A stretch of 64,000 nt of DNA from Xanthomonas sacchari (GTDB lineage: Bacteria > Pseudomonadota > Gammaproteobacteria > Xanthomonadales > Xanthomonadaceae), in NCBI RefSeq assembly GCF_024266585.1, contig NZ_CP100647.1, positions 1,407,001 through 1,471,000 on the forward strand. Direction: 5' to 3'. This document shows positions 3,036-28,134 of the stretch, piece by piece. The notes under the pieces were generated by a model. That model was given only the letters and a program-made list of their open reading frames with translations. It was not told the DNA's origin and made no database searches. The position numbers and the translations under genes are program-made. The first letter of the stretch is position 1. Each line of letters begins with the position of its first letter.

Positions 3036-4358
<1,323 letters not shown>

Positions 4359-9896: not shown

Positions 9897-10618
<722 letters not shown>

Positions 10619-12820: not shown

Positions 12821-12821
12821 G

Positions 12822-13319: not shown

Positions 13320-13358
13320 CCTCCGCGACGGGCTCCATCGAACCCTTGGGGCATGGTA

Positions 13359-13376: not shown

Positions 13377-13392
13377 AAGTCAAGAGGTGATC

Positions 13393-13812
13393 ATGGACAT
13401 TGCGGAAGTCGCCAAGCGCACCCACCTGGCGGCATCGACCTTGCGCTTCTACGAGAAGAAGGGGCTGATTCAGGCCACGCGATCGGCTGGTGGTCGGCGG
13501 GATTTCCCACCCCGCGTGTTTGAGCAACTGGCGTTGATCGCACTCGGGCAGGCGGGAGGTCTGTCGCTGGACGAGATCGGCGCCATGCTTTCGCCGGAGG
13601 GCGCTGTGCATGTGGACCGAACCTTGCTGCTGGCCAAAGCCGACGACATCGACGCGACCATCAAGCGTTTGCGCGCGATGAGTCAGGGCCTGCGGCACGC
13701 CGCCGCGTGTCCGGCGCCGAGCCATGCCGAATGTCCAAGCTTTCGGCGGCTGTTGAAAGTGGCCGCATCGGGACGATTGAAACAGGCCGCCACGATGCCG
13801 AGGACGCCATGA
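13393..13812 (+). CDS. MerR family transcriptional regulator
   Basis: 139 aa. The N-terminal winged helix reads DIAEVAKRTHLAASTLRFYEKKGLI, followed by a wing and a coiled-coil dimerisation helix (about residues 75-110). Cysteines at CPAPSHAEC near the C-terminus could bind metal or sense redox state, as in MerR metal/oxidant sensors, but the pattern is not diagnostic. The start ATG follows GAGGTGATC. A longer frame from 13363 would overlap the operator and is rejected. Its likely targets are itself and the divergent DUF2938/methyltransferase pair. Confidence 0.88.
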   Translation: MDIAEVAKRTHLAASTLRFYEKKGLIQATRSAGGRRDFPPRVFEQLALIALGQAGGLSLDEIGAMLSPEGAVHVDRTLLLAKADDIDATIKRLRAMSQGLRHAAACPAPSHAECPSFRRLLKVAASGRLKQAATMPRTP

Positions 13813-14008
13813 TGCACAAGACAGCCGGCGATCCTGAGGCCGAATTGGGCGCTGCCACAGTGATCTTTGTGCCTGCACAGGCCACCTTCATAGCGAGGCG
13901 TCAGCGCGGAACCTGGCGCCCTCGTTGAGCTGCAGCGCGTGGGTAAGGCGACTTCGATCAAAGCGCCGACGCCTTCCTGCGTGCCGCGGATAGCCGTCCT
14001 GGCCATCG

Positions 14009-15157: not shown

Positions 15158-15426
15158 CAGAACGTCACCTGCAGTCTTCCGTAGTAGTAGGCCCCGCTCC
15201 AACCGAACGGCGAGAGCTCGCTGTAGGGGAACACGCCATAGGTGCCGGCGCCAGAGACGGCGGGGGTGGTAGCGATATTGCGCGTGGGATAGGTGTTGAA
15301 CACATTGTCCGCCCCCAGCGTCAGCACCAGGCGCTTGGAAATGCGCAGCGAGACGTCCGCGTCGGTGATCCACTTGGCGTCCAGCCACTGGATCAGATCG
15401 TAGCTGCTGGTGACGATCTTCCCGCC
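15157..15426 (-). pseudogene. TonB-dependent receptor, 3' remnant
   Basis: About 90 codons of a receptor C-terminus are preserved: GGKIVTSSYDLIQWLDAKW, the typical DNVFNTYPT motif and the terminal-strand GAYYYGRLQVTF ending in Phe. Upstream of about 15426 the receptor homology stops abruptly and an unrelated sequence takes over, so 5' roughly nine-tenths of the gene is lost. It overlaps the Tat-aminotransferase start. It is a clear deletion or recombination scar. Confidence 0.8.
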
Positions 15427-15429
15427 GCG

Positions 15430-15616
15430 GGTGCAGTGCGCGATCGACGCCGGCCGTCGCCGGGCCGACCTGGTGCCTACCGACGTGCTGCTGCTCAAGC
15501 TGTTCAGCGCCTGCGCGATGGCGATGCTGCAGCCGCTGGCGCCGTTCGAGCGCATCCGGGGCTTTGCGATGGCGATCGCGCAGCCCGTCGCGGGCGAGGC
15601 CGACGCGGCCGGTTAG
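15430..15616 (+). pseudogene. Unidentified gene fragment on the opposite strand
   Basis: An open frame ending at 15616 reads RADLVPTDVLLLKLFSACAMAMLQPLAP and has coding-like composition, but no start region and no recognisable domain. It abuts the receptor stump head-on, which suggests it is the 3' end of another gene brought here by the same rearrangement. A helical regulator C-terminus is possible but not demonstrable from the sequence alone. Confidence 0.35.
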
Positions 15617-15659
15617 GGCCGCGTGCGCCTGCTGCGCCCCGCGAAAGGCGCTGGTTTGC

Positions 15660-16274
15660 TCAGTACACGACGCTGAAGCGCTGGCCGTTGTGCTTGGGCG
15701 ATTCGATTTCGTCGAGCAGGGCCACCGCGTAGTCCTCGTAGGAGATGCGGCTCTCGCCCTTGGCGTCGGTGAGGAAGGCATCGCCGCCCAGGCGGAACTG
15801 GCCGGTGCGCTCGCCGGGACCGAAGAACGCCGCCGGCGACAGGAAAGTCCAGGTGATGTCCTTCACCCCGTGCAACTGATCCAGGAAGGCCGCGCCGGGC
15901 AGCGCCTCGGACTTGTACGCGGCCGGGAACTCCGGCGTATCGACCAGGCGCATGCCTGGGGCGACTTCCAGCGAACCGGCGCCGCCGACCACGGCCAGGC
16001 GCGGGATCTTCGCCGCGCGCACCGCGGTCAGCACGTGCTCGGGCGTGACCTCGGCGAACCTGGCGGCGCTGATGAAGACATCGTGGCCGGTCAGCTTGGC
16101 GCCCAGCGCGGCCGGGTCGGCGGTGATGTCGCCCTGGACGAAGGCCACGCCCTCGGGCAGATCGTCGACCGGCTTGCGCGCGATGACGGTAACGGAGTGG
16201 CCGCGGCGCAGGGCCTCGGCCACAAGACGACGGCCGACGTTGCCGGTGCCGCCAAGCAGGGCGATGGATGCCAT
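15660..16274 (-). CDS. NAD(P)H-binding (NmrA/SDR-like) oxidoreductase
   Basis: 204 aa. The N-terminal Rossmann motif is IALLGGTGNVGRRLVAEALRR (GGTGxxG). VTVIARK, VQGDITADP and the C-terminal SYEDYAVALLDEIE match the NAD(P)-binding Rossmann proteins of the YwnB/YtfG type, which lack the classical YxxxK. The ATG at 16274 has GGGAGAAG upstream, and a 23-residue longer frame is rejected. It is divergent from an HxlR regulator, a pairing often seen for quinone/electrophile-responsive reductases (inference). Confidence 0.88.
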   Translation of the reverse strand: MASIALLGGTGNVGRRLVAEALRRGHSVTVIARKPVDDLPEGVAFVQGDITADPAALGAKLTGHDVFISAARFAEVTPEHVLTAVRAAKIPRLAVVGGAGSLEVAPGMRLVDTPEFPAAYKSEALPGAAFLDQLHGVKDITWTFLSPAAFFGPGERTGQFRLGGDAFLTDAKGESRISYEDYAVALLDEIESPKHNGQRFSVVY

Positions 16275-16290
16275 TGGTGCTTCTCCCTTG

Positions 16291-16382
16291 ATGGTTACGA
16301 AAAGGAACCATGCCATCATGCGCGTCACGCCCCTGTCTGCCAAGAAGGGAACCCGACGTGTCCAGGTAACCGCCAGGTAACC
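16291..16382. promoter_or_regulatory. Candidate operators between the oxidoreductase and hxlR-type genes
   Basis: ATGGTT-ACGAAAAGG-AACCAT (16291-16311) is a 6-bp inverted repeat whose inner part also reads GGTTAC...GGAACC. An AGGTAACC octamer is repeated directly at 16364-16371 and 16375-16382, spaced 11 bp, one helical turn. Both sit between divergent starts, where an HxlR dimer would be expected to bind. The assignment is inference. Confidence 0.45.
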
Positions 16383-16434
16383 CCGTCACCCAGGTCCCGC
16401 GCATCCGCAATCCCCAATCCCCAATGCCGATCCA

Positions 16435-16815
16435 ATGACCCTGCACCGCTCCACCGCCCCCTACGCCGCCCACTGCCCCGTGCGCGATGTGCTCGATCGA
16501 CTGGGCGATCGCTGGAGCACGCTGGTGCTGCAGGCACTCAAGCCGGCGCCGCTGCGCTTCGCCGCGTTGCAGCGGGCCATCGACGATGTGTCCAAGCGGA
16601 TGCTGGCCAAGACCCTGCGCGGGCTCGAGGAAGACGGGCTGGTCACGCGCACGGTGTTTCCCAGCAAGCCGCCGGCGGTGGAGTACGCGCTGACGCCGCT
16701 GGGCCGCAGCTTCGTGCCGCATATCGAGGCGCTGGTGGCCTGGGCGCAGACCCACCACGACGCGATCCGCGACGCGCGCCGCCTGTATCGCGAGCAGGTC
16801 GACGCGGCGACCTGA
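16435..16815 (+). CDS. HxlR family transcriptional regulator
   Basis: 126 aa with one HxlR winged helix: [22 protein letters not shown], then [30 protein letters not shown] (recognition helix) and the wing VEYALTPLG. The N-terminal Cys in AAHCPVRDV is at the position used as a redox/electrophile sensor in YodB/HypR-like members. It is transcribed away from the NAD(P)H-binding oxidoreductase, which it probably controls. Confidence 0.92.
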
Positions 16816-16869
16816 GCCGCCGTTCGGCGCGCCCGTCCATCCGGAACGGGCGCGATCACGTCTTCTGCA

Positions 16870-17085
16870 TCAGGGCCTGTCGATGTCCATCGCGCAGGCC
16901 AGTGCCTGCCGGGTTTCCAGCTCGGCCAGGCCTGCGCTGAGGCCGGCATGCACATGGGCATAGGCTGCACTGCCAAGCACCAGGCGACGCGGCATCGCCG
17001 CTGCGTCGGCGACTTCGAGGATGGCGCGCACCATCTTGTGCACATCGCCCTCGATGGCGAACGCGCCGGCGCGGGCGCCGAACAT
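16870..17085 (-). pseudogene. Short-chain dehydrogenase, C-terminal remnant
   Basis: About 70 codons match the C-terminal tail of the SDR subgroup ending in LVLGSAAYAHVHAGLSAGLAELE and a terminal Asp-rich stretch, after GDVHKMVRAILEVAD. There is no Rossmann or YxxxK region. Upstream (above about 17085) the sequence becomes part of an N-acetyltransferase fragment on the other strand, so only the 3' end of the gene survives. Confidence 0.7.
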
Positions 17086-17092
17086 CGCCGAG

Positions 17093-17524
17093 GTGGGGGG
17101 CCGGCGCTGGCTGTGCGACCTGGGCTTTGGCAGCGACGGGATCCGCGCGCCGATGGACCTGGATGGCCTCGACACCGACGTCGTGCAGGACTTCGACACC
17201 TTCCGCCTGAGCCGCGATGCGCGCGGCGAGTCCCTGCTGCGGGCCAAGGTGGGAGGTGACTGGGCGAAGCGATACGGCTTGGATCTGTCGCCGCAGGAGT
17301 GGGTCGATTTCGTCCCCGCCAACTACCTCAATGCCACCCACCCCGACGCCATCTTCGTGCAGACGCTGCTGGTCGTGCTGCATCGGCCCGATGGGCGGCT
17401 GATCCTGCTGGGCGACACGCTCAAGACGGTGACGCGGGGGCGTGTCGAGACGCGGCAACTGGCCGGACCGGCAGTGGTCCAGGTGCTGGAAGGGTGCTTC
17501 GGGCTCCCGGCCATCTCTGCGTAG
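17093..17524 (+). pseudogene. Arylamine N-acetyltransferase, 5'-truncated remnant
   Basis: The frame preserves domains II and III of NAT: RRWLCDLGFGSDGIRAPM (containing the catalytic Asp position), then DLSPQEWVDFVPANYLNATH and HPDAIFVQTLLV, ending FGLPAIS. The catalytic Cys and His, which lie upstream in the family, are absent. In their place lies the antisense tail of an SDR gene. The protein cannot be active, so this is a relic. It is convergent with the XRE regulator gene. Confidence 0.8.
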
Positions 17525-17537
17525 AGACGTGCTCCCA

Positions 17538-18410
17538 TCACAAGGGGTCGGCAGCGCACGCCGTCGCGCTGCGCAACTCCCGCAACTTCTGCGCTGTGCC
17601 ATCCTCATCCAGCGGCGTGTACACCACCAGCTTCATGCCTGGCCGGTCGGCGACCTCCAGGGTGGTGTACTCGAAGGTCATGCGACCCGCCTCCGGATGC
17701 TGGATGCGCTTATGGCCATCGAATGGCCGCAGCACGTCGTGCTTGGGCCACCACTGGCGGAACTCGGGACTGGCCTGCGCCAGCGTGTCGATCAGACGGG
17801 CGAAACCGGGGTCGCCGATGTGGCGGGCACTGTCGGCGCGGAACATCGCCAATGCGCTCGGGGCGAGCTGCTCCCAATCGAGCAGCAGGCGCCGGTGGGC
17901 CGGGTCGGCGAAGACCAGGTGCATGATGTTGCGCTGGTCGCCCTGCAGCCGGTCGTAGTCACCGAACAGCGCCTGCGCGGCCCGGTTCCAGGCCAGGACG
18001 TCCCAGCGGCGCCCCAGCACGTAGGCAGGCTGGGTTTCCATGCTGTCCAGCATGCGCCGCAGCGGAGCGTCCACCTGCTCCGCTCCCGCCGCTGTCGGCG
18101 CCGGCACGGGGCGGTCGCTCAGCAGGAACAGGTGTTGCCGCTCAGCGGCGTCGAGCTTCAGCGCGTCCGCCAATGCGGACAGTGCCTCAATCGAGGGCGA
18201 GACGTCGCGTCCCTGTTCGAGCCACGTGTACCAGGTGGTGCCGATGCCGGCGAGCTGTGCGACTTCCTCACGTCGCAGGCCGGGCGTGCGGCGGCGGATG
18301 CTGGCGGGCAGGCCGGCCTGAGCCGGGCTCAGCCGTTCGCGGCGCGAGCGCAAGAAGGCGCCAAGCTCGCGCCGCCGGATTGCAGACTCGGGCAAGGAGG
18401 ATGGGGGCAT
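17538..18410 (-). CDS. XRE family regulator with MmyB-like ligand domain
   Basis: 290 aa. An N-terminal helix-turn-helix (RRTPGLRREEVAQLAGIGTTWYTWLEQGR) is the hallmark of this actinobacterial/proteobacterial group. The PAS-like MmyB ligand-binding domain follows (about residues 105-280: YVLGRRWDVLAWNRAAQALFGDY, HLVFADPAHRRLLLDWE). Members usually control an adjacent SDR or oxidoreductase gene. Here an SDR gene starts divergently 105 bp away. An 11-bp palindrome GTACC-G-GGTAC at 18426-18436 lies just upstream of its start. Confidence 0.92.
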   Translation of the reverse strand: MPPSSLPESAIRRRELGAFLRSRRERLSPAQAGLPASIRRRTPGLRREEVAQLAGIGTTWYTWLEQGRDVSPSIEALSALADALKLDAAERQHLFLLSDRPVPAPTAAGAEQVDAPLRRMLDSMETQPAYVLGRRWDVLAWNRAAQALFGDYDRLQGDQRNIMHLVFADPAHRRLLLDWEQLAPSALAMFRADSARHIGDPGFARLIDTLAQASPEFRQWWPKHDVLRPFDGHKRIQHPEAGRMTFEYTTLEVADRPGMKLVVYTPLDEDGTAQKLRELRSATACAADPL

Positions 18411-18515
18411 GCGGGAAGCCTAGCAGTACCGGGTACCAGGATGCCGCCGAAACTGGTTGCGCATGAAGCGCCTCCCAACAATGCGGCGACTCCCCAACCA
18501 TGAAGGACCGACACC

Positions 18516-19232
18516 ATGCCGCAACCCCACACCCTGATCGTCGGAGGCTCCTCGGGCATCGGCCTGGCCAGCGCCCGGGAACTGCTCGCCCTCGGCCACC
18601 GCGTCACCATCGCCGGACGCGATGCGAAGCGTCTGGAGGCCGCCAGGCAGGCAGTGTCCGGCGACCTCGCTACCGCCGTCATGGATGCGGCGGAGACCGA
18701 CCACCTGCCGCAGGCCTTCGCACGGCTCGGCGCGCTGGACCACCTCGTGCTGGCGCTGGGCAGCGGCAAGGGCGCGGGGCCTTTTGCCACGGTGGCGCTC
18801 GACGACGTACGCCAGGGATTCGAGGAGAAGTTCTTCCCGCACTTCGCTGTGGCACAGGCGGCGCTGCCGTCGTTGCGCAAGGACGGCAGCCTGACGTTTG
18901 TCTCGGCGGTGACGGCCCACGCCGCCATGCCCGGTACTGCAGGGATCGGCGCCGCGAATGCAGCGGTCGCCGCGCTCGTGCCCATCCTTGCGGCCGAGTT
19001 GCGTCCACTGCGGGTCAACGGGGTTTCGCCTGGCGTGATCGATACGCCCTGGTGGGGCTTCCTGGACGATGCGCAGAAGGCGGCGGTGTTTGCCGACTAC
19101 GCCGCCAAGACCCCGGTCGGCCGCGTCGGCCAACCGGACGACGTGGCGCAGGCCATCGCCCTGCTGGTCAGCAATGGCTTCGTCAGCGGGCAGATGCTGA
19201 TCTGCGATGGCGGGTTGCGCCTGGGCAGTTAA
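18516..19232 (+). CDS. SDR family oxidoreductase with atypical active site
   Basis: 238 aa. The cofactor motif IVGGSSGIGLASARELL (GxxxGIG) and the C-terminal NGFVSGQMLICDGGLRLG are standard. The catalytic Ser is at about residue 130 (SLTFVSAVTAH), but where YxxxK should follow the sequence is PGTAGIGAANAAV, with neither Tyr nor Lys. It may therefore have lost dehydrogenase activity or use other residues. It is divergent from the MmyB-type regulator, which presumably represses it. Confidence 0.9.
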   Translation: MPQPHTLIVGGSSGIGLASARELLALGHRVTIAGRDAKRLEAARQAVSGDLATAVMDAAETDHLPQAFARLGALDHLVLALGSGKGAGPFATVALDDVRQGFEEKFFPHFAVAQAALPSLRKDGSLTFVSAVTAHAAMPGTAGIGAANAAVAALVPILAAELRPLRVNGVSPGVIDTPWWGFLDDAQKAAVFADYAAKTPVGRVGQPDDVAQAIALLVSNGFVSGQMLICDGGLRLGS

Positions 19233-19371
19233 CGGCCTTCTCCGGGACGGGTGACGTGTCGCTGATCGCCGATCAGGCGTCATCCCCGCTGGAGCAAGCC
19301 GGCGCAGCGCGGTGACCGGCAACGGCGGGGCCGGCGAACGTGCGCGGATGCCGGCGTCACCGCATGTGGCG

Positions 19372-19824
19372 TCAGTGCGGCGGTGCCGGCGGATCGCGTG
19401 GTGCCGGCCGGCTCAGCACGAACGCGGCGCTGGCGGCGATGGCCAGGCCCACGCCCAACGCCAAGGGGGCGCCGGGGTGCGCGCCACAGCAGAACAGCAG
19501 GTAGCCGATCGCCATGCCGCTGGCGGCGAAGGCCTTGCCGCGGCGGCTGATCGCGCCCTGCTCGCGCCACAGCCGCAGCGGCGCGCCGTAGCGCGGATGC
19601 GTCAGCAGCCAGGCCTCCAGCCGCGGCGAGGAGCGCGAGAAGCAGTACGCCGCCAGGATCAGGAAGATGGTGGTCGGCATCACCGGCAGCAGCGCGCCGA
19701 TCAGGCCCAGCGCCAGCATCAGCAGGCCCAGGCCGCACCACAGCGCGCGGCTCACCCGCACCGCGGCCGCTCCGGCAGGGATGTCGGTGTCATCGGGGGA
19801 CGGCTGGCAGATGCAGGTCGACAT
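19372..19824 (-). CDS. YbaN/DUF454 family membrane protein
   Basis: 150 aa with three or four membrane helices. ALWCGLGLLMLALGLIGALLPVMPTTIFLILAAYCFSRSSPRL is the DUF454 signature (GxxLPxxPTTxFxLxAxxCFxRSSPR). The chosen ATG at 19824 overlaps the haem-oxygenase 3' end by 35 bp, placing it as the last gene of the haem operon. Its role is not known. The position suggests a link to haem or iron handling at the inner membrane (inference). Confidence 0.85.
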   Translation of the reverse strand: MSTCICQPSPDDTDIPAGAAAVRVSRALWCGLGLLMLALGLIGALLPVMPTTIFLILAAYCFSRSSPRLEAWLLTHPRYGAPLRLWREQGAISRRGKAFAASGMAIGYLLFCCGAHPGAPLALGVGLAIAASAAFVLSRPAPRDPPAPPH

Positions 19825-20392
19825 AGGCCTCGACCTGCGCGAAGGCCGCACGCGCCGCCGCGATCACCGCCTGTTCCTGCTCGGTGGCCAGTGCGATGCG
19901 GTCCAGCGCCGCGGTGAACTGGCGCCAGTGCCGCGCGCGCCCGTCCTCGGGGCCGGCCAGGTGGCGCGCACCGAACTGCGCGTGCAGGCCCAGCCGCGCG
20001 GCCAGCTTGGCCAGGATCGCCGCGCCCAGGTTGGAGCCCTCGGCCACATACAGCCAGCCCAATGCCTCGACCTGCCGGGGATAGTCGGTGCGGTGGAGCG
20101 CGGTGCCGCCGGTGGCCGGCGGCGCGACGCCCAGGTCGTGCAGATCGGCGACGAGCGCCGGCAGCCGCCGGCGTTGCGCCAGGTCCGGCACCACGCTGGC
20201 CAGCACCGGGTTGCCGTAGATGCTCTCCATGTCGCAGTGGAAGCGGTACTGCACCTGCAGGAAGCGCTTGTAGTGCTCGCGCGAGGCGAAAGGCTGCGCG
20301 GCCATGATGCGCTGGTCCAGTCGTGCATGCGCCTGGTGGGTGGCGGCCTTCAGCCGCTCGGCGCGGCTGGCGTGGGCGAGGAGGTCGGTCAT
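19790..20392 (-). CDS. hemO: Biliverdin-producing haem oxygenase
   Basis: 200 aa, bacterial HemO/PigA length. It opens haem to biliverdin, CO and iron in the cytoplasm. The proximal His is H22 in LKAATHQAHARLD. The distal helix carries GWLYVAEGSNLGAAIL, the G-x-x-YVxEGSxxG pattern of bacterial haem oxygenases. A GTG at 20476 would extend it by 28 Pro/Ala-rich residues overlapping the Slam gene. The ATG at 20392 fits the family better. No bacteriophytochrome is adjacent. Its neighbours are a haem-uptake set, so the job is iron release from imported haem. Confidence 0.92.
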   Translation of the reverse strand: MTDLLAHASRAERLKAATHQAHARLDQRIMAAQPFASREHYKRFLQVQYRFHCDMESIYGNPVLASVVPDLAQRRRLPALVADLHDLGVAPPATGGTALHRTDYPRQVEALGWLYVAEGSNLGAAILAKLAARLGLHAQFGARHLAGPEDGRARHWRQFTAALDRIALATEQEQAVIAAARAAFAQVEAYVDLHLPAVPR

Positions 20393-20465
20393 GGCAGCGG
20401 GCGCTCGTTGGTCGGGGGGAGGGAGCAGTGCGGCATCTGTGGCCTCGGGAGCGTTGATGGGGGCG

Positions 20466-21968
20466 TCACAGCGCACGCTCCAGCTTCAGGCTCAGCGTGT
20501 TGCGGTCGTAGGTGTACAGCCAGTCGACGTTGCTGCGTACGCGGTTGCGGCGCAGCGTCAGCAGCGGCACGAAGCCGGCGACGGCCAGCCGCGGCGCGCG
20601 CAGCACGAAGGTGTAGCCCTGCTCGTCGTCGTGGCGGCGGGCGCGCAACACCGTGCTGTAGGCGCCGTAGTCGCGCTGCCGGTAGGAGGCGAACAGGGTG
20701 GCGCTGACGCCCGCCCATTGCCGCGAACCGCCGAGGCGCACACCGCGCTGCAGATAGGCCTCGGTGTCGCGCACCGCGGCGCTGTCGCTGACGTCCAGCC
20801 CGGCGAACACCGTCCAGCGTTCGTCGAGGCTGCGGAAGTAGGTGGCGTAGGCGCTGCGCACGATCGCGTCGTAGCTGGCGGCGTAGTCCTGGCGCCGGTA
20901 GCGTTGCGCCCTCCAGTCGCCTTCCAGCTTGAGCAGGGAGCGCGCCGACAGCGTCCAGCTCCACTCCGCATGCGCGCCCCAGGCGCCGTACAGCGCCTGG
21001 TTGCCCAGGGCGTAGTAGTCGAACGCTGGCGCCAGCGCGGCGCTGTGGCGTCCGCTGCGGTAGCTATAGCCGGCCTGCGCGCTCGTGGTCAGCTCGTTGT
21101 AGGCGCTGTGGTCGCGGTAGCCCTGGCCGAACAGCACGGCGCGCAGGTACAGCCCATGGTGTCCGCGCAGCGGCAGGCGCCGGTCGAGGCTGGCGTCGTA
21201 GTCGTCGCCGAAGGCGGTGATCGCCGCCGGCGTGCTGCGGCTGAAGTAGCAGCGTCCATCGAAGCTCAACAGGCAGGTGGAACTGGCCGAAGTGCGGTTG
21301 ACGTTGTCGCTCCAGGCCGGGCCGAGCGCGAGGCTGCCGTTCCAGCCACGCCGCTTGGCCAGCGCTTCCCGAAAGCCGGCGATGCTGTTGCGCACGCCCT
21401 CGGTCTTGGGATCGCCGGCGTCGATCGACGCGGCGATCGCCGCGAACGCCTGTTCGGCCTCGCGGTCCTGCTGATCCTCGAACAGCACCCGCGCCAGTTC
21501 CAGGCGCCCGGGCAGGAAGTCCGGCTGCAGCGCCAGCAGCGCGCGGTACTCGCGCTCTGCGTCGCGGTAGCGGCCAGCGTTGCGCGCGACCGCGCCCTGC
21601 GCGTAGTGCACCAGCAGCGGATCGCGGTCGGGCAAGGTCAGGTATTCCTGCAGGAAGCGCTGCACCGCCGGCCATTGCCGGTGCTGCAGCGACAGGTACA
21701 GCGCGCGGCCGACGTCGTTGGCGCTGTGGGCGACGACGTAGGGCGTGCCGTCGATGACGATGCTCGGCCGTTCGCCTTCGCCGTGTTCCTGCAGCAGAGC
21801 GCGCTCGCGCTCGGCGGCCTGGCGCTGGTCGCGCTGCTCGAGCATGCGCCGGGTGTCGTCCTGCTGCTGCGCCGGGGCGCAGAAGGCGATCGCGGCCAGC
21901 AGCAGACACGCTGCCAAACGGGGAAGCGGGCGCGGCAGGCGGCGCCGTGGAAAAGGCATGGGGTGCAT
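20466..21968 (-). CDS. Slam-family outer-membrane translocator (DUF560)
   Basis: About 500 aa. There is an N-terminal signal (LPRLAACLLLAAIAFCAPAQ), then a TPR-bearing periplasmic domain (QHRQWPAVQRFLQEYL, AQGAVARNAGRYRDAEREYRALLALQPDFLPGR), then a C-terminal barrel with many alternating aromatic strands (RRGWNGSLALGPAWSDNVNRTS, GHHGLYLRAVLFGQGYRDHS) ending LSLKLERAL. This is the Slam architecture: TPR plus a 14-strand DUF560 barrel that moves TbpB-barrel-type proteins across the outer membrane. Starts at 21968 or 21959 fit the signal peptide, and TTG 22037 is possible. It lies directly downstream of its presumed substrate. Confidence 0.85.
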   Translation of the reverse strand: MHPMPFPRRRLPRPLPRLAACLLLAAIAFCAPAQQQDDTRRMLEQRDQRQAAERERALLQEHGEGERPSIVIDGTPYVVAHSANDVGRALYLSLQHRQWPAVQRFLQEYLTLPDRDPLLVHYAQGAVARNAGRYRDAEREYRALLALQPDFLPGRLELARVLFEDQQDREAEQAFAAIAASIDAGDPKTEGVRNSIAGFREALAKRRGWNGSLALGPAWSDNVNRTSASSTCLLSFDGRCYFSRSTPAAITAFGDDYDASLDRRLPLRGHHGLYLRAVLFGQGYRDHSAYNELTTSAQAGYSYRSGRHSAALAPAFDYYALGNQALYGAWGAHAEWSWTLSARSLLKLEGDWRAQRYRRQDYAASYDAIVRSAYATYFRSLDERWTVFAGLDVSDSAAVRDTEAYLQRGVRLGGSRQWAGVSATLFASYRQRDYGAYSTVLRARRHDDEQGYTFVLRAPRLAVAGFVPLLTLRRNRVRSNVDWLYTYDRNTLSLKLERAL

Positions 21969-22055
21969 CGAACGGTCGCTGGAGGCGGCAAGCAGGACTG
22001 GCATGACGGCGGCTGGTCCTGCTTGGTATGGGTGCAACGTGGAGAATCGGTCGGC

Positions 22056-22817
22056 TTACTGCTTGGTGCCGCCGAACGCGGTGTCGTACTGGACCCCTGC
22101 GAAATCGGCGATGCCGGCCAGCGCGCTCTGGTTGGCGTAGAACTGGCCGGAGACCGCACCGTTGCTTGCGACCACGCTGCCGGACTGACGCGCGATGGCG
22201 TTGCTGCCGGAGATGCTGGCGTTGCTGTTGATGCTGGCCGTGCCGATGTTGACCGCGAAGCCGGCGTTGTTCTGGATCGAGCCGGTCAGGCGGCCGGTGC
22301 CGAAGTTGGCGGTGAAGGTGCCGGTCAGCTGGTTGCTGCCGTTGTAGTTGTTGAGGCCGACCACGCTGTAGCTGGCGGTGCCGGAGCTGGGCACGCTGCT
22401 GTCGGGCTTGTCGCCGATGAAGTACACGGTGTGCGTGTTCATACCCTCGGCATTGTCCTTGCGCGAATACCACTCGCCGAACCACACGTCCTGGCTGCCG
22501 ACCTGGGCGAAGGCGAACACGCCGAGGTTGTCGTGGCTGCTCGGTGCGCCGCTGTACGGGAAGTTCAGCACCTTGACCGAGCCGGGACCGCCGTACGTGG
22601 ACAGGCCCTGGAAGTCCACCGGCTTGTTCAGGCCGGTCGAGTTCACCGCGATGCCGGCCAGGCCGGCGTGGTGCGGGCCGCCGTTGACGGTGGATTCGCC
22701 GACCTTGACGTAGCTTTCGTTGCTCGACTTGCCGAGGAACGGCGCGGCGTGGGCGCTGCCCAGCACGCTGGCGACGGCCAGGCCGAGCAGGGCGGCGTGA
22801 GTGCGTTTCATGTTCAT
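22056..22817 (-). CDS. Hemophilin-like secreted haem-binding protein (Slam substrate)
   Basis: 253 aa. The start ATG at 22817 has AGAAGGACG upstream. A type I signal peptide (MNMKRTHAALLGLAVASVLG, cleavage after AHA about residue 24) without a lipobox Cys predicts a free secreted protein. The C-terminal half is a TbpB-type beta-barrel: SGTASYSVVGLNNYNGSN, GTFTANFGTGRLTGSI, GAVSGQFYANQSALAGI and the terminal AFGGTK. The N-terminal handle has GGPHHAGLAG (His49/50) and APSSHDNLG (His95), candidate haem ligands. Position between a TonB receptor and Slam, with hemO in the operon, matches the Acinetobacter HphA/HphR/Slam cluster known from the literature. Confidence 0.8.
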   Translation of the reverse strand: MNMKRTHAALLGLAVASVLGSAHAAPFLGKSSNESYVKVGESTVNGGPHHAGLAGIAVNSTGLNKPVDFQGLSTYGGPGSVKVLNFPYSGAPSSHDNLGVFAFAQVGSQDVWFGEWYSRKDNAEGMNTHTVYFIGDKPDSSVPSSGTASYSVVGLNNYNGSNQLTGTFTANFGTGRLTGSIQNNAGFAVNIGTASINSNASISGSNAIARQSGSVVASNGAVSGQFYANQSALAGIADFAGVQYDTAFGGTKQ

Positions 22818-22901
22818 GCGATACGTCCTTCTGGTTGGATTGGAACGAGGGGGACATCCCTGTCCGGGGTAGGTGACACTCCTTGATCGGTGCGCGCGCG
22901 C

Positions 22902-25900
22902 TCAGAATCTCCCGGTCAGGCTGAGTTTCAGCGTGCGTCCTGGCGCGGCCATGGCCGAGCGCGTGGCCGGATCCACGTAGTAGCGGTCGGTCAGATTGGT
23001 GCCGGTCAGTTCGATGCTCAGGTTGTCGCGCAACGTGTAGCGCGCGTAGGCGTCCAGCAGCACGGTCGTGCCCCAGGAGAACGGCACGTTGAAGGTATAG
23101 ACGAATCGACCGGTGCCGGGCTCTTTCTGTACCGAGTTGTCGCGGAACCATTCCAGGTCCGGGTTGCGGTACTGCCGGTAATAGGTGACGCGCCCGCCCA
23201 GTTCCAGGCGGCGCTGCAGCATGCGCGCGCCCAGCGACCAGCTGGCCGACAGCTTCGGCGTGCTCTGGGTCAGCAGATAGCCGCCGACGAAGCCGTAGTC
23301 CACGCAGGTCGGCACGATCTTGCCGCGGCCGATGACGAAGCCGTTGGTGGTGCTCAGCAGCGCCGCGGTGGTCTCGTCGCAGACCTGGTTCTTCAGGGTG
23401 TAGTTGGCGCCGAGGTCGGTGAACACGCGGCCGTTGTCGTAGCGGCCCTGGAACTCGAGGCCGCGGATGGTCTGCTTGTCGATGTTGTCGAACTTGAAAC
23501 TGGGATCGCGCTCGATCACGTCGCGGGTCTTGTTGACGTAGTAGGCCAGCTTGAGGTCGGCGATGGTGTCGGCGCCGAGCAGCGGACCCAGGTCGTGGAC
23601 ATAGGCGACTTCCCAGTTGTAGGCATGCTCGGGCTTGAGATTCCACGGATTGAGCGAGGCGGAGAAGGCCACCGTGCTCTCGAACATGCTGGGATAGCGC
23701 AGGGTCTCGCCGTAGCGGAAGTAGACGCGGCTGTCGTCGCTGAGATTGGCGGTGGCCGAGAAGAACGGTACCCAGCCATGGTCCTTGCGCTTGCGCGCGG
23801 TGCCTTCGATGGTGTGCCGCACCGAATTGATGAAGCAGGTGTTTCCGGCCGCACCGGGCAATCCCTCCAGCGAGCCGTTGAGGCATGGGTTGCCGGCCTT
23901 GCTGTACTTGCCGTCGCCATCCGGCATCCACGGCACCTGGTGCTCGACCTGGTAGGTGGTGGGGAGGCTGTTCCACACGGAGGCGGTTAACTCGTTGAAC
24001 TCCTCTTGCGTGAGTATTCCCAGGTCCAACAACTCGCTGTAGCCGGCGATGCTGTCGGCGGCCAGTGCCTCGCGCTGCTGCTGGGTATAGGTTTCGGTGG
24101 TCTTGTACTCGACGTCGTAGCCGGTGGTCACCGATTCCCTGATCTGTCCCGGGTGCGCAGCGAGGAAGTCGTCGAAGGCCCAGTAGCTGGCGTAGCGCGC
24201 GCCGCCACTCAGGGTCAGGAACTCCAGCGGTCGCCATTCGACATTGAAGTCGGCCTGCCACTCCTGGCGCCGGCCCGCGCGCGGGTACATGCGCCAGCCG
24301 TCGCTGGCACCGAAGTACGGGTCGCGCGAGCGCAGCGTTTCGTGCTGGAGGTTGCCGCCCACGGTCAGGTCCAGCGTGTCGGCCAAGGCGATCTTGTTGC
24401 TCAGGGTGAGGCCGTTGCGGGCGTTGCTGGCGTTGGCCAGCGCGGTGTTGCGGATGATCGGGCTGTAGCCCTCGCCGGTCTGCCAATCGGGATTGGCGAA
24501 GTTGGGAAAGCCGCCGGCGGTGTAGGTATCGCTTTCGGTGCTGGTGCGCCACAGGTTGGCGTACAGGTCGATCCAGCGGCTGTCCGCCGGGCGCCAGGTG
24601 TACTCCAGGTTCCATGCCTGGGCATCGACCCGGCTCAACGGCCATTGGATGGCGGCACGGTCCTTGGATTCGATGATGCGCGAGGGCATCACTTCGCCGT
24701 AGTGCGAGAGACTGTCGCGGTACCCCAGCTGCAGCGCCTGGCTGTCGCTGGAGCGCCAGGTGACCTTGAACAGCCAGGACTCCATCTGGCTGGAGGTGTT
24801 GGGTACTTCGTTGCCGGGCAACCAGTAGTTGGCCATCGACAGGATGTAGTCGTCGGCGGAGGAGCTTCTCGGCTTGCTGTAGTAGCCGGCGCCGCGCTTG
24901 CCCGAGAAGTAGTTGCCGCGCTCGCGATAGGCGTAGGCAGCGAGCAGGTCGAGGTTCTCGGTCGGCCGCCAGCCCAGCGCCAGCCGATAGGCGTCGTCCT
25001 TGCCGCTGAACACGTTGTAGCCGCCGCCACCGCGCCTTGGCGTGATCATCAGCGTGGGGTCGGTGTAGGGGATGTTGGGAGCGTTCTGCGGGAAATCCGC
25101 GACCGTGCGGTAGTCCTCGCCGGTGTGCAGGGTCGGCAGCCGCGGCCGGGTCGCGTTGCTGCTGCCCTCGGCGCGGAATTCGCCGCCGAAGCGCTGGCCG
25201 GGATCGAGGATGTCGTCCACGTCCAGGGTATTGATCACCATCGCGCCGCCGATCCCGGTGACGACATTGCGGGTCAGCGACGGACCCTTGAGGATCTGGA
25301 TGCCGCCGATCAGGAACGGATCGATGTAGTTGCGATTGCTGGCGCCGTTGTAGCCGCGCCACACGGTCAACGCCTGTTCGGTGCCGTCGATGCTCACCGG
25401 CACCCGGCCAGGTCCCTGGATGCCGCGGATGTTGAGGTCCAGCGCGCCGCTGTTGCGGGCGTCGCCGCTGAACACGCCGGGTACGCCGTTGACCAGGTCC
25501 GAGGGCGTGGCGCCCTTGTAGCGCTCCACCTCGGTACGGCCGATGTAGGCGCTGGACAGGTCCAGGTCGTAGACCGCGTCGCGGCCGCGGCGGTCGCGCG
25601 CTTCGCCGCCACGGTTGTCGTCGGCGTTGCCGGCCACCCGCAGCGTGTCGATGGCGATCGCGCCGTCCTGCGCTGCGGCCGGTTCCAAGGTGACCGCGTT
25701 CGGGCCGGTGTGGCGCGCGCGCAGGCCGCTGCCCTGCAGCAACTGCTGCAAGGCCTGTTCGGCGCTGTAGTCGCCCCGCACCGCCGGCGCCGTGAGGCCG
25801 TCGGTGGTCCGGCCGGTGTACAGCACCTGCAGGCCGGTTTGTGCCGACAATTGCAATAGCGCTTGCGCGAGCGGCTGCGCCGTCAGGTCGACGGGATAGC

Positions 25901-26036
25901 GGGGGGCTTGCTCGGTGACGGGGGAGGGCGTTTGCGCGATCGCGGCAGGACTGAGCAGGGCCAGCGCCAGGGCATGGCTGAGCAGGGCGAACGCGGGCGC
26001 ACGGCGAACGCGGGCGGCAGGGGGATGGGTTGGCAT
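22902..26036 (-). CDS. TonB-dependent receptor with STN signalling domain (putative hemophilin/haem receptor)
   Basis: 1044 aa. Signal peptide about 1-34. STN domain about 48-117 (YPVDLTAQPLAQALLQLSAQTGLQV), which relays occupancy to FecR. Plug about 150-300 (GATPSDLVNGVPGVFSGDARN, LNIRGIQGPGRVPVSIDGT, VTGIGGAMVINTL). A 22-strand-type barrel ends LKLSLTGRF. Around residue 760 ETLRYPSMFE...NPWNLKPEHA resembles the FRAP/NPNL-box region of haem receptors. It follows fecI-fecR and precedes the hemophilin-like gene by 84 bp, all on the minus strand. Ligand identity is inferred from neighbours. Confidence 0.9.
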   Translation of the reverse strand: MPTHPPAARVRRAPAFALLSHALALALLSPAAIAQTPSPVTEQAPRYPVDLTAQPLAQALLQLSAQTGLQVLYTGRTTDGLTAPAVRGDYSAEQALQQLLQGSGLRARHTGPNAVTLEPAAAQDGAIAIDTLRVAGNADDNRGGEARDRRGRDAVYDLDLSSAYIGRTEVERYKGATPSDLVNGVPGVFSGDARNSGALDLNIRGIQGPGRVPVSIDGTEQALTVWRGYNGASNRNYIDPFLIGGIQILKGPSLTRNVVTGIGGAMVINTLDVDDILDPGQRFGGEFRAEGSSNATRPRLPTLHTGEDYRTVADFPQNAPNIPYTDPTLMITPRRGGGGYNVFSGKDDAYRLALGWRPTENLDLLAAYAYRERGNYFSGKRGAGYYSKPRSSSADDYILSMANYWLPGNEVPNTSSQMESWLFKVTWRSSDSQALQLGYRDSLSHYGEVMPSRIIESKDRAAIQWPLSRVDAQAWNLEYTWRPADSRWIDLYANLWRTSTESDTYTAGGFPNFANPDWQTGEGYSPIIRNTALANASNARNGLTLSNKIALADTLDLTVGGNLQHETLRSRDPYFGASDGWRMYPRAGRRQEWQADFNVEWRPLEFLTLSGGARYASYWAFDDFLAAHPGQIRESVTTGYDVEYKTTETYTQQQREALAADSIAGYSELLDLGILTQEEFNELTASVWNSLPTTYQVEHQVPWMPDGDGKYSKAGNPCLNGSLEGLPGAAGNTCFINSVRHTIEGTARKRKDHGWVPFFSATANLSDDSRVYFRYGETLRYPSMFESTVAFSASLNPWNLKPEHAYNWEVAYVHDLGPLLGADTIADLKLAYYVNKTRDVIERDPSFKFDNIDKQTIRGLEFQGRYDNGRVFTDLGANYTLKNQVCDETTAALLSTTNGFVIGRGKIVPTCVDYGFVGGYLLTQSTPKLSASWSLGARMLQRRLELGGRVTYYRQYRNPDLEWFRDNSVQKEPGTGRFVYTFNVPFSWGTTVLLDAYARYTLRDNLSIELTGTNLTDRYYVDPATRSAMAAPGRTLKLSLTGRF

Positions 26037-26063
26037 GCTGGGGGTATCGAAGACGGATTTGTG

Positions 26064-26080
26064 GGAATGAAAATCATTCC
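26064..26080. promoter_or_regulatory. Fur-like palindrome before the receptor gene
   Basis: GGAATGA-AAA-TCATTCC has perfect 7-bp arms, 28 bp upstream of the receptor start. It shares the ATGAnnATCAT core of Fur boxes. It supports iron repression of the receptor-hemophilin-Slam-hemO operon. Assignment rests on pattern and context only. Confidence 0.65.
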
Positions 26081-26170
26081 GTTCTTCCCGTTTAGACGGG
26101 CCGACGCCCGCGCGCTCCCCAGTGGCGCGTTCGACGAAACGGACGCACCCGGGTTTTATTTAGTTTGCGT

Positions 26171-27202
26171 TCACTTTTTGGGCGCGGGTGCGCCAGCCGC
26201 ATCCGCTGGCGACCGGTACACGATGGTCAGCCAGGGCAGGTCCAGCGAGCGCAGCCGCAGGCTGTCCAGCAGCGTGCGCATGGCGAGGTCCGGATCGGCG
26301 ATGTCCAGCGACCCGGACACCGGCAGCGCACGCAGGGCGTCGCCGCGGACGACGACGTGGCCGTGCCGATAGCGCGCGAGTGCGTCCAGCGCCTGTGCCA
26401 GCGACATGTCGGAGAACACCAGTTGCCGACGCTGCCAGGCGCCGATCGTCAGGGGATCGCGATCGGCAAGACGGCGCACGACCGTGTCCTGCAGCCGCGC
26501 GGATTGGCCCGCGCCCAGCACCGCGCCGGCGCCGCCGTCCGGCGCACGCACGGCGACGCGGCCAGCGATGACCCCGACCTCGGCGGTATCGCCCTGTACG
26601 CGCACGGCGAAGCGCGTGCCGAGGACGCGCGCGCTGCCGCCGCGGCTGTCCACCACGAACGGGCGCCGCGGGTCGTGGGTCACCTGGAACGCCGCTTCGC
26701 CGCGCAACAGCCGCACCGTGCGCAGGCCCGGGCGCAGTTCGACGGCGATGGCGCTGTCGGTATCGAGCGTGACCACGCTGCCGTCGGCCAGGCGCAGGGT
26801 GCGGATCTCGCCGACCCGGGTGTAGGCATCGCTGCGCAGCCGTTCCACGCCGCCGCTGCCCAGCCACAGGCCGCCACCGATCGCCAGCGCCAGCCCGGCG
26901 GCGGCATGGCGCGGCCAGCGCCGGTGCCGCCGCGTATGTGTCGGCGAACTGGTCGGCAGCGGTGCCGCTACTGCGGCGGCCACCGGATCCAGTTCGTCGG
27001 CCAGGGCCGCGGCCGGCGCCTGCAGCAGGCCGAGCATGGCGCCGGCCTCGGCCATGGCCTGCGCGTGCGCCTGCGGCGCCAGCGCCAGCCACGCGGCATG
27101 CGCGCGTCGCGTGTCGGGGTCGTCCGGCGCCGCATCCAGTTGCAGGAGCCAGTGCAGCGCTTGTTCGAACAGGGCGTCATCGACGTGAGGGGGCGCGGGC
27201 AT
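26171..27202 (-). CDS. fecR: FecR-type anti-sigma/signal-transduction protein
   Basis: 343 aa. The N-terminal DUF4880 region (residues 5-55: ALFEQALHWLLQLDAAPDDPDTRRAHAAWL) binds the sigma factor. One membrane helix lies at about 100-120 (AAAGLALAIGGGLWLGS). The periplasmic FecR domain reads VGEIRTLRLADGSVVTLDTDSAIAV and GEAAFQVTHDPRRPFVV. The C-terminal secretin/TonB-short-like domain (SLAQALDALARYRHGHVVV) contacts the receptor STN domain. It is preceded by fecI (106-bp gap) and followed by the STN receptor, a complete cell-surface signalling triad. Confidence 0.93.
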   Translation of the reverse strand: MPAPPHVDDALFEQALHWLLQLDAAPDDPDTRRAHAAWLALAPQAHAQAMAEAGAMLGLLQAPAAALADELDPVAAAVAAPLPTSSPTHTRRHRRWPRHAAAGLALAIGGGLWLGSGGVERLRSDAYTRVGEIRTLRLADGSVVTLDTDSAIAVELRPGLRTVRLLRGEAAFQVTHDPRRPFVVDSRGGSARVLGTRFAVRVQGDTAEVGVIAGRVAVRAPDGGAGAVLGAGQSARLQDTVVRRLADRDPLTIGAWQRRQLVFSDMSLAQALDALARYRHGHVVVRGDALRALPVSGSLDIADPDLAMRTLLDSLRLRSLDLPWLTIVYRSPADAAGAPAPKK

Positions 27203-27308
27203 GCAGTGCCTATCCGTCAGGAATGGGTCGGGGCGCGCGGCGGGCGCAGGCCAGGGGATTATTCGGGACGACGGGTCGAGTGTGCGCGTCCCCGTAGCCG
27301 GCGGCTGC

Positions 27309-27863
27309 TCAGACGTCGCGACCGGCCTCGCGCAGGCGGCGCCGGCAGTGCGTCACCGCCACGGCGATGTGCTTTTCGACCGTGCGCGGCGAGATGCCCA
27401 GTCGCGCGGCGATCTGCGCGATGCTCAGGTTGCGCCCGCGGAACAGCACGAACACCCGCCGCGCCTGCGCCGGCAGGTCGCGGATCGCCTGCAGCAGCAG
27501 CGCGTACTCCTGCTGGCTCAACGCGCTCTGGTACGGCGAGGGCGCCGGCGACGGCACCGTGTCGATGCCGTCGTTGGCGGCGGCAAAGCGGCTGCGCGAG
27601 GCCGCCACGCGGCCCTGGTCGATGGCGACGTTGTCGACCACGCGCCGCAGGTAACTGGCCGGATCGCGCAGGCTGCGCGCGTCGGGCGCATCGGCGGCCG
27701 GGGCGCGCGTGGCCAGGCGCAGCCAGGCATCGTGCACCAGGTCGTTGGCCGCGCCGGCGTACTTGCGCGCCGCGTAGCGCTGCAGCTCGGTGTAGTGGCT
27801 TTCCAGCGCATCCGCCAGCGCGGCTGGCGGGTCCTGGGGAGGAGGAAGGGGCATGGCATCCAT
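27309..27863 (-). CDS. fecI: ECF sigma factor, FecI type
   Basis: 184 aa. Region 2 is LESHYTELQRYAARKYAG...NDLVHDAWLRL and DPASYLRRVVDNVAIDQ. Region 4 is AIRDLPAQARRVFVLFRGRNLSIAQIAARLGISPRTVEKHIAVAV. It would direct transcription of the receptor operon when the receptor signals ligand binding. Start ATG at 27863. ATG 27854 is equally possible because neither has a strong Shine-Dalgarno. A Fur-like site lies 40 bp upstream. Confidence 0.93.
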   Translation of the reverse strand: MDAMPLPPPQDPPAALADALESHYTELQRYAARKYAGAANDLVHDAWLRLATRAPAADAPDARSLRDPASYLRRVVDNVAIDQGRVAASRSRFAAANDGIDTVPSPAPSPYQSALSQQEYALLLQAIRDLPAQARRVFVLFRGRNLSIAQIAARLGISPRTVEKHIAVAVTHCRRRLREAGRDV

Positions 27864-27902
27864 CCGCAGACCACAAGGAAAGGGATGGAATTCTAATTTG
27901 GA

Positions 27903-27917
27903 TGAGATTCATTCTCA
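27903..27917. promoter_or_regulatory. Fur-like palindrome before fecI
   Basis: TGAGA-TTCAT-TCTCA, embedded in GATGAGATTCATTCTCAAT, matches the Fur consensus core (AATGAnAnTCATTCTC-like). It is 40 bp upstream of fecI and in an AT-rich island unusual for this window. It would make the whole haem regulon iron-repressed (inference). Confidence 0.65.
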
Positions 27918-28134
27918 ATTGAAGTGACGCCACGCCGGTTTCCGCCGTGCGTTTGCGTCGGCACTGCGGTCCACGCTGGAGAAACTGCAAAACCGCTGCC
28001 GGATCAGGCGCTTGGGCTAGGACAGCGAATGCCGGCGGCGCCCGCCCGGCGAGGGTCTGGCCGCGCACGCGCTTGCGGTCGTGGCTGGGACTGGTATCGT
28101 GCGCCGCCCGATCCTCGACGCCGAGACCTGAGCG

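What the first reader, a model, noticed from the sequence alone, without database searches (positions are those of the whole stretch)
19372..27863. Complete hemophilin/Slam/haem-oxygenase island with its own FecIR signalling
Seven co-directional genes form a plausible full circuit: ECF sigma factor, FecR, STN-bearing TonB receptor, a signal-peptided TbpB-barrel protein without a lipobox, a TPR-DUF560 Slam translocator, haem oxygenase and YbaN. The order and composition resemble the Acinetobacter hemO/hphA/hphR/slam locus. I do not know of a described Slam-dependent hemophore in a Xanthomonas-type plant-associated genus, so this is the strongest novelty in the window. Seen: domains, order, signals. 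Inferred: that the 253-aa protein binds haem and is secreted by this Slam.
Basis: partly seen in the sequence, partly recalled or inferred. Interest (0 to 1): 0.88.

Follow-up and report, generated by a model that had tools for sequence, protein, structure and literature searches.

The report
Secreted heme-scavenger island in a xanthomonad
A plant-type bacterium carries a swappable gene island that very probably makes, exports, senses and uses a secreted heme-grabbing protein, a kind of system already known from animal-associated bacteria, but here without the energising genes its relatives carry.

Summary
In detail: seven co-directional genes lie at 19372-27863, minus strand. The 253-aa protein is a hemophilin by family (Pfam HphA_N 3.7e-35, HphA_C 9.7e-42; closest solved relative hemophilin 8gmm, E 1e-53). 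It has no cysteine, keeps both heme-ligand histidines of A. baumannii HphA (His49, His95), and its predicted structure (pLDDT 89.5) has eight C-terminal strands. Its neighbours are a Slam, a HasR-like STN receptor and a pa-HO-type heme oxygenase.

The kind is known: the published A. baumannii hemO cluster has the same order, sigma/anti-sigma pair included, plus a TonB-related gene. The island is not complete: the 11 other Xanthomonadaceae loci examined that have the oxygenase and DUF454 genes all carry tonB downstream (9 with exbB-exbD); this one has none. And hemophilins of this family are not unknown: 8gmm is 206 of 217 identical to one of them.

What I did not find described: the island lies between yicC and gmk, adjacent in 9 of 12 genus members without it. 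Among eight islands compared, receptor barrel, hemophilin and Slam have a history different from the sigma pair and the receptor's signalling domain, as after exchange of one block.

The parts
27309..27863 (-). ECF (FecI-type) sigma factor, 184 aa
   Evidence: Pfam Sigma70_r4_2 8.8e-13; NCBIfam sigma70-ECF 3.7e-21 above cut-off
27903..27917 (-). Candidate Fur box upstream of the sigma gene (TGAGAATGAATCTCA)
   Evidence: Only match to TGATAATNATTATCA with up to 3 mismatches in the 64-kb window, 0.03 expected; 3 of 100 shuffles had a match; a near-identical element lies at about -54 to -60 in 8 of 8 loci printed, the window included. The longer 19-base Fur score is weak here (11 of 19; 270 of 2000 shuffles reach it)
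26171..27202 (-). FecR-type anti-sigma factor, 343 aa
   Evidence: Pfam FecR 5.8e-23
26063..26084 (-). Palindromic element upstream of the receptor gene (GAACGnAATGnnTTTCGTTC-like), possible ECF promoter or Fur operator
   Evidence: Seen by eye in 8 of 12 upstream stretches printed (window, L028, L053, L049, L054, L050, L052, L032), not in L051, L029, L030, L031; Fur score 12 of 19, reached by 50 of 2000 shuffles; identity not settled
22902..26036 (-). HasR/HphR-like TonB-dependent receptor with STN signalling domain (aa 69-120), plug (aa 159-264) and barrel, 1044 aa
   Evidence: Pfam STN, Plug, TonB_dep_Rec; best solved relative HasR 4.5e-39
22056..22817 (-). Hemophilin (HphA family), 253 aa, signal peptide, no cysteine
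   Evidence: Pfam HphA_N 3.7e-35 and HphA_C 9.7e-42 above cut-off; NCBIfam slam_lipo 3.7e-38 above cut-off; PDB 8gmm 1e-53; AF2 model pLDDT 89.5
22671..22673 (-). His49, aligned with heme ligand His43 of A. baumannii HphA
   Evidence: Alignments; His in 28 of 31 rows; ligand role from a passage of PMC8560813
22533..22535 (-). His95, aligned with heme ligand His106 of A. baumannii HphA
   Evidence: Alignments; His in 29 of 31 rows; ligand role from a passage of PMC8560813
20466..21968 (-). Slam / T11SS outer-membrane translocator, about 500 aa, N-terminal TPR + DUF560 barrel
   Evidence: Pfam TPR_Slam 1.2e-26, SlipAM 1.6e-44; only match in its genome at E <= 0.001
19790..20392 (-). Heme oxygenase, 200 aa
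   Evidence: Pfam Heme_oxygenase 1.2e-23; PDB pa-HO 1sk7 8.6e-42, HemO 1j77 1.3e-36
19372..19824 (-). DUF454 (YbaN-type) protein, 150 aa, frame overlapping the heme oxygenase
   Evidence: Pfam DUF454 5.8e-33
11587..28134 (.). Whole insertion between yicC (10726-11586) and gmk (28135-28761): the heme island plus 7.8 kb of unrelated genes where relatives have exbB-exbD-tonB
   Evidence: yicC-gmk gap is 113-156 bp in 9 of 12 same-genus genomes without the island; the names yicC and gmk are recalled, not from a family search

Best explanation
The island is a hemophore-based heme-iron uptake system of the HphA/HphR/HsmA kind. Low iron lifts Fur repression of the sigma gene. The hemophilin crosses the inner membrane by Sec, is released without lipidation, and is moved across the outer membrane by the neighbouring Slam. 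Outside, it captures heme between two histidines and hands it to the HasR-like receptor. Receptor occupancy is signalled through the STN domain to FecR and the ECF sigma factor, which raises expression of receptor, hemophilin and Slam. Heme is pulled in by TonB and opened by the heme oxygenase to release iron. In this genome the energy must come from a general TonB-ExbBD set, because the one that relatives keep in the island is missing. Shown by computation: gene identities, order, predicted fold, ligand residues, a Fur-like site, purifying selection, absence of exbB-exbD-tonB from the island. Inferred: heme binding, secretion by this Slam, signalling, use of a general TonB.
For: Curated family matches for every part. 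Of the six best solved relatives, four are named hemophilin, one haemophore, and one a transferrin-binding-protein-like protein whose aligned stretch reads like 7re4. A high-confidence model has eight strands at residues 147-252. Both HphA heme ligands are present. The receptor is most like HasR, the hemophore receptor that signals through HasI/HasS. The A. baumannii hemO cluster has the same gene order but for a TonB-related gene, and is shown to work in heme uptake (passages). A Slam match lies directly downstream of the hemophilin in 32 of 33 loci. Receptor barrel, hemophilin and Slam share a history apart from their flanks, as expected if they must fit one another. dN/dS of the seven genes is 0.27-0.49 against two relatives. 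A Fur-like site lies upstream of the sigma gene.
Against: No experiment on this locus. exbB-exbD-tonB is missing, and HasR-type hemophore release needs extra Ton energy (PMC9249621, passage), so uptake could be weak. HasR His189 (a heme ligand, recalled) aligns with a tyrosine here (Tyr229, invariant in 18 of 18 receptors), so the receptor does not handle heme exactly as HasR does. No inner-membrane heme transporter lies in the island, and I did not search the genome for one. The comparison of the model with solved folds could not be run.
Confidence: 0.87

Rival explanations
1. The locus is a fading system. After loss of exbB-exbD-tonB the hemophilin is still made and secreted but heme uptake no longer works well, and the genes are on the way out.
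For: The window is the only one of 12 compared Xanthomonadaceae loci with heme oxygenase and DUF454 that lacks tonB. The ExbD of relatives has only a 44% match elsewhere in the genome. Hemophore release in the Has system has a raised Ton demand (passage). dN/dS of sigma and FecR is somewhat higher in pairs with the window (0.39, 0.47-0.49) than between G250 and Pseudoxanthomonas (0.30, 0.37).
Against: All seven frames are intact, and for receptor, hemophilin, Slam, oxygenase and DUF454 dN/dS in pairs with the window (0.27-0.44) is about that between G250 and Pseudoxanthomonas (0.25-0.41). The genome has 9 TonB_C and 5 ExbD matches elsewhere. Four of four g29 stretches fetched also show no tonB match.
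Confidence: 0.12
2. The hemophilin serves mainly to starve competitors of heme rather than to feed the cell, as reported for Haemophilus haemolyticus.
For: H. haemolyticus hemophilin inhibits non-typeable H. influenzae (start of the abstract of PMC10964412, passages of PMC12119688).
Against: The gene is embedded between its receptor and a heme oxygenase behind one sigma/anti-sigma pair, which points to uptake. Most likely competitors on plants make their own heme (general knowledge).
Confidence: 0.1
3. The protein is a TbpB-like surface co-receptor for some ligand other than heme.
For: Weak TbpB_B_D and HpuA matches, below cut-off. NCBIfam names the family Slam-dependent surface lipoprotein.
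Against: No cysteine for lipidation. HphA_N, the heme-binding domain model, matches at 3.7e-35. Both heme ligands are present. A heme oxygenase lies in the gene row.
Confidence: 0.03

Closest known systems
Acinetobacter baumannii hemO cluster (HphA/HphR/HsmA)
   Same: Order ECF sigma, anti-sigma, hphR, hphA, hsmA (Slam), TonB-related, heme oxygenase, small hypothetical protein (table in PMC10483418, passage); bis-His heme ligands. Against the A. baumannii locus L034 the window is 45% identical in the receptor, 46% in the hemophilin and 35% in the Slam
   Different: The published cluster keeps a TonB-related gene, part of the set that let E. coli use hemoglobin (PMC8560813, passage). L034 itself is not in the published order: its oxygenase and DUF454 matches lie upstream of the sigma gene and it has two hemophilins. 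Sigma and FecR of L034 are 24-25% identical to the window's. HphA was described with a lipobox; this protein has no cysteine, nor have the two L034 copies
Hemophilin PDB 8gmm and its relatives in genus g29 of the same family
   Same: Same HphA_N/HphA_C family; closest solved relative; linked to ECF-FecR-receptor-Slam in 4 of 4 g29 stretches fetched
   Different: 51-54% identity for three of the four g29 loci, 41% and 51% for the two copies of the fourth; no heme oxygenase, DUF454, exbB, exbD or tonB match in those four stretches
Serratia marcescens Has system (HasI/HasS/HasR/HasA/HasB)
   Same: Sigma, anti-sigma, STN receptor and secreted hemophore in one operon, Fur sites, signalling by receptor plus hemophore (PMC9249621, passages); receptor sequence match 4.5e-39
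   Different: HasA leaves by other exporters (HasDE) and belongs to another protein family (recalled); Has keeps a dedicated TonB paralogue, HasB; HasR His189 is Tyr229 here
Xenorhabdus HrpA/HrpB/HrpC type 11 secretion locus
   Same: Hemophilin homologue tested with its own DUF560 protein in E. coli (PMC8406197, passages)
   Different: TonB, receptor, HrpB and HrpC are named in the passage; no sigma/anti-sigma pair or heme oxygenase is mentioned there

Membership tests
Hemophilin (HphA family) | HphA_N heme-binding domain plus HphA_C domain above curated cut-off | tested here: met
   121.1 bits vs 22 and 142.4 vs 31
Hemophilin (HphA family) | C-terminal eight-stranded barrel behind an N-terminal clamp | tested here: inconclusive
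   AF2 model pLDDT 89.5, pTM 0.85, eight strands at 147-252 fit the barrel; barrel closure and the clamp were not checked, because the fold search did not run
Hemophilin (HphA family) | Two His heme ligands as in A. baumannii HphA | tested here: met
   His49 and His95
Hemophilin (HphA family) | Binds heme with high affinity | not testable with these tools
   needs spectroscopy of the purified protein
Slam / type 11 secretion protein | N-terminal TPR domain plus DUF560 barrel | tested here: met
   TPR_Slam 1.2e-26, SlipAM 1.6e-44
Slam / type 11 secretion protein | Moves its cargo over the outer membrane | not testable with these tools
   needs a secretion assay; linkage in 32 of 33 loci and shared history are indirect
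FecIR/HasIS-type cell-surface signalling | ECF sigma + FecR anti-sigma + receptor with STN domain | tested here: met
FecIR/HasIS-type cell-surface signalling | Sigma-dependent promoter before the receptor gene | tested here: inconclusive
   palindromic element upstream of the receptor in 8 of 12 loci printed, identity not settled
A. baumannii hemO-type cluster | Gene set sigma, anti-sigma, hphR, hphA, hsmA, TonB-related, heme oxygenase, small protein | tested here: not met
   no TonB-related gene: it works like this cluster but lacks one part; whether the published small protein is a DUF454 was not checked

The most novel reading that the evidence does not exclude
Hemophilin islands of xanthomonads are built of exchangeable modules. 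A specificity block (receptor barrel, hemophilin, Slam; about 4.7 kb) swaps by recombination inside the conserved plug and at the heme-oxygenase start. The signalling block (sigma, anti-sigma, STN) and the energising block (exbB-exbD-tonB, lost here) are exchanged or dropped independently. A Slam-secreted hemophore would then act as a private, diversifying co-ligand of a signalling receptor in plant-associated bacteria, as HasA does for HasR.
Probability: 0.5. Interest if true: 0.6.

Novelty: new member of a known kind. Interest (0 to 1): 0.42.

Why it matters
The type 11 secretion proteins verified so far are said to come from an animal-associated cluster (start of the abstract of PMC12282271). 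A horizontally exchanged, apparently Fur-linked hemophilin island at a fixed site in a plant-type genus raises the question of which heme such a bacterium scavenges. The natural mosaics of barrel, hemophilin and Slam are ready-made chimeras for asking which cargo fits which translocator and receptor, and the island lacking its own TonB set tests whether hemophore uptake needs a dedicated energiser.

Tried and rejected
Rejected: that the 253-aa protein is only a vague TbpB-barrel protein (both HphA domains pass the curated cut-offs); that it is a lipoprotein (no cysteine); that the missing exbB-exbD-tonB simply moved elsewhere (best ExbD match in the genome 44%; TonB and ExbB of relatives were not searched genome-wide by sequence, only TonB_C and ExbD domains were counted).

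Led nowhere or speak against: fold search against the PDB; a second structure job, for the Slam; a Fur score upstream of the hemophilin gene (9 of 19, reached by 1309 of 2000 shuffles); the 19-base Fur score before the sigma gene (11 of 19, 270 of 2000 shuffles), only the 15-base form standing out. The search with TGAGAATNAATCTCA is circular, the pattern having been read off the site. Trees: the groups were named after looking at identities. The lineage group G111+G252+G134+G186+X. bonasiae is itself recovered in the hemophilin (96/96) and Slam (100/98) trees and not rejected in the barrel (p 0.12), so the conflict rests on finer groups. The oxygenase-DUF454 segment does not settle the matter: its best tree pairs G111 with G252 (66/92, not starred), and neither G111+G134 (p 0.26) nor G134+G186 (p 0.32) nor the class A group (p 0.32, the same split) is rejected. 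The plug segment (aa 179-262) is neutral, 6:6. In the window's own island the block is not indivisible: over most of the receptor barrel it is nearer to Pseudoxanthomonas, over the hemophilin nearer to G250.

Papers: PMC8560813, PMC8406197, PMC12282271, PMC10483418, PMC7857515, PMC12119688, PMC6240677, PMC9249621, PMC9513982, PMC3826837 and PMC13391677 were seen as search passages only; PMC5449769 gave no passage for the terms asked; PMC10964412 only as the start of its abstract in a listing. Shin et al. 2024 and Grossman et al. 2024 (J Bacteriol) were seen only as titles in reference lists. Recalled, not from a call: that 8gmm comes from Stenotrophomonas maltophilia; that HasR His189 is a heme ligand; that 7re4 is A. 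baumannii HphA; the gene names yicC and gmk.
Full report
What is there. On the minus strand, from 27863 down to 19372, lie seven intact frames: ECF sigma, FecR, a 1044-aa receptor, a 253-aa secreted protein, a Slam, a heme oxygenase and a DUF454 protein. Each has a Pfam match above the curated cut-off. The receptor has an N-terminal STN domain and is most similar among solved structures to HasR (4.5e-39). The oxygenase is most similar to pa-HO. The block is bounded by a convergent SDR gene on one side and the divergent gmk on the other.

The 253-aa protein is a hemophilin. HphA_N matches at 3.7e-35 and HphA_C at 9.7e-42. Of the six best solved relatives, four are named hemophilin, one haemophore and one transferrin-binding-protein-like. 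It has a signal peptide (by eye) and no cysteine; none of the 31 rows of the alignment has one, though some rows are cut at the N-terminus. His49 is conserved in 28 of 31 rows and His95 in 29 of 31; they align with His43 and His106, the two heme ligands of A. baumannii HphA (PMC8560813, passage). The AF2 model (pLDDT 89.5, pTM 0.85) has eight strands at 147-252, as expected for the barrel. I could not compare it with solved folds.

Where it lives. The genome shares its genus code with G247, whose contig C66 has the length of the X. bonasiae contig of L032 (204141). I call the family Xanthomonadaceae; NCBI now says Lysobacteraceae. Hemophilin is patchy: HphA_N in 16 of 247 genomes sampled in the family, HphA_C in 8 of 20 in the genus. 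In 7 of the 8 genus members the island lies beside gmk; in G170 it lies elsewhere. In the 12 genus members without it, yicC and gmk are 113-156 bp apart in 9, 6.2 and 10.0 kb apart in 2, and yicC was not found in the stretch fetched in 1. Between the window and its near relative G250 the flanks are 94-96% identical, but the islands only 61-94% in 250-column steps. The Pseudoxanthomonas winnipegensis island, from another genus, is about as close as that of G250. Exchange between lineages is the simplest reading.

What is missing. Downstream of DUF454, relatives carry exbB, exbD and tonB (Pfam MotA_ExbB, ExbD and TonB_C among the genes scanned from three loci). Of the 11 other Xanthomonadaceae loci examined that have heme oxygenase and DUF454, 9 have all three genes and 2 (L030, L031) a TonB match alone; the window has none. 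All 7 Vibrio loci also have the trio, after the Slam. Family members G030, G098 and G209 were not fetched with flanks. In the window the place is taken by 7.8 kb of other genes (11587-19371). The nearest ExbD elsewhere in the genome is only 44% identical to the island type, although the genome has 9 TonB_C and 5 ExbD matches in all. The seven genes nevertheless look to be under purifying selection (dN/dS 0.27-0.49).

Modules. G111 and G134, two genus members with the island at the same site, have nearly the same sigma (95%), FecR (86%), oxygenase (90%) and DUF454 (92%), while their hemophilins are only 64% identical, Slams 69%, receptors 79%. Site patterns switch sharply. Sites where G111 agrees with G134 against G252, versus with G252 against G134, number 286:72 over sigma, FecR and receptor aa 1-178; 6:6 over aa 179-262; 106:863 over receptor aa 263-1044, hemophilin and Slam; and 81:25 over oxygenase and DUF454, whose 35-base overlap is counted twice. 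The switches fall in the conserved plug (equivalent to about 25560-25080) and near the start of the oxygenase gene (about 20380). Trees of the eight islands agree in part. G111+G134+X. bonasiae is a supported clade in the sigma-FecR-STN segment (97/100) and is rejected in the barrel, hemophilin and Slam segments (AU p 2.7e-9, 2.6e-62, 4.0e-8); conversely G134+G186+X. bonasiae (p 0.002) and G111+G252 (p 4e-5) are rejected in the sigma-FecR-STN segment. The oxygenase-DUF454 segment is not resolved by trees, the wider lineage group is recovered in some block trees too, and all groups were chosen after seeing the identities (see Tried and rejected). The sigma pair differs between lineages as well: in L029, L030, L031 and L051 receptor and Slam are 57-73% identical to the window's, but sigma and FecR only 27-36%.

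Regulation. The only near-consensus Fur site in the 64 kb (TGATAATNATTATCA, up to 3 mismatches; 0.03 expected) lies at 27903-27917, just upstream of the sigma gene, and a near-identical element stands in 8 of 8 loci printed. A palindrome precedes the receptor gene in 8 of 12 loci printed and may be the sigma-dependent promoter or a Fur site; this is open. A review lists, in the Fur regulon of S. maltophilia K279a, fecI4-fecR4-fecA4 followed by an 'iron regulated lipoprotein' and an 'energy transducer TonB' (PMC6240677, passage); this may be the same kind of locus, which I did not test.

How it works. By analogy with HphA/HphR/HsmA and HasI/HasS/HasR/HasA: iron shortage, sigma expression, Slam export of an unlipidated hemophore, heme capture by two histidines, delivery to the receptor, STN-FecR-sigma feedback, TonB-driven uptake, cleavage by the oxygenase. 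Heme binding, secretion and signalling are inferred for this protein, not shown.

Known or new. The A. baumannii hemO cluster has the same set in the same order, plus a TonB-related gene, and a hypothetical protein at the end whose family I did not check (table in PMC10483418, passage). A survey of type 11 secretion loci reports frequent co-occurrence with heme oxygenase (137 of 1,111) and DUF454 (118 of 1,111) (PMC12282271, passage). The PDB hemophilin 8gmm is 206 of 217 identical to that of G124, a member of another genus of the same family (mismatches counted by eye from the printed alignment). In the library searched, 'hemophilin' and 'Xanthomonas' occur together in 3 papers, none of which describes a Xanthomonas hemophilin in the passages seen; two 2024 papers on hemophilins were not held. 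This is a new member of a known kind, with one part missing and an exchange history that I did not find described in what I could read.

Noticed in passing
window 11587-19371: The 7.8 kb that takes the place of exbB-exbD-tonB holds a methyltransferase, DUF2938, a MerR regulator, an aminotransferase, an NAD(P)H-binding protein, an N-acetyltransferase frame matching only profile positions 94-233 of 240, an MmyB-like regulator and an SDR; it looks like an accessory-gene patch.
   Followed up: partly
window 15157-15555 (-): By eye, a frame ending like a TonB-dependent receptor C-terminus with no full receptor in front: probable receptor remnant; Pfam gives no hit at 0.001.
   Followed up: no
L105 (G249) and L110 (G153), yicC-gmk interval: The same yicC-gmk site holds other inserts of 10.0 and 6.2 kb in two relatives, so the site may be a general insertion hot spot.
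   Followed up: no
L041 Vibrio salilacus 1555-12241: A Vibrio hemophilin locus also lies right beside gmk-rpoZ-spoT, the same neighbour as in the xanthomonads; coincidence or shared insertion preference is open.
   Followed up: no
L034 Acinetobacter baumannii 10001-11652; L058 (G071) 8644-10109: Tandem hemophilin copies; in each pair one copy lacks one of the two heme-ligand histidines (Gln or Thr instead), hinting at altered function.
   Followed up: no
receptor Tyr229, window 25350-25352: A tyrosine, invariant in 18 of 18 receptors compared, sits where HasR has His189: a possible different heme ligand in HphR-type receptors.
   Followed up: partly
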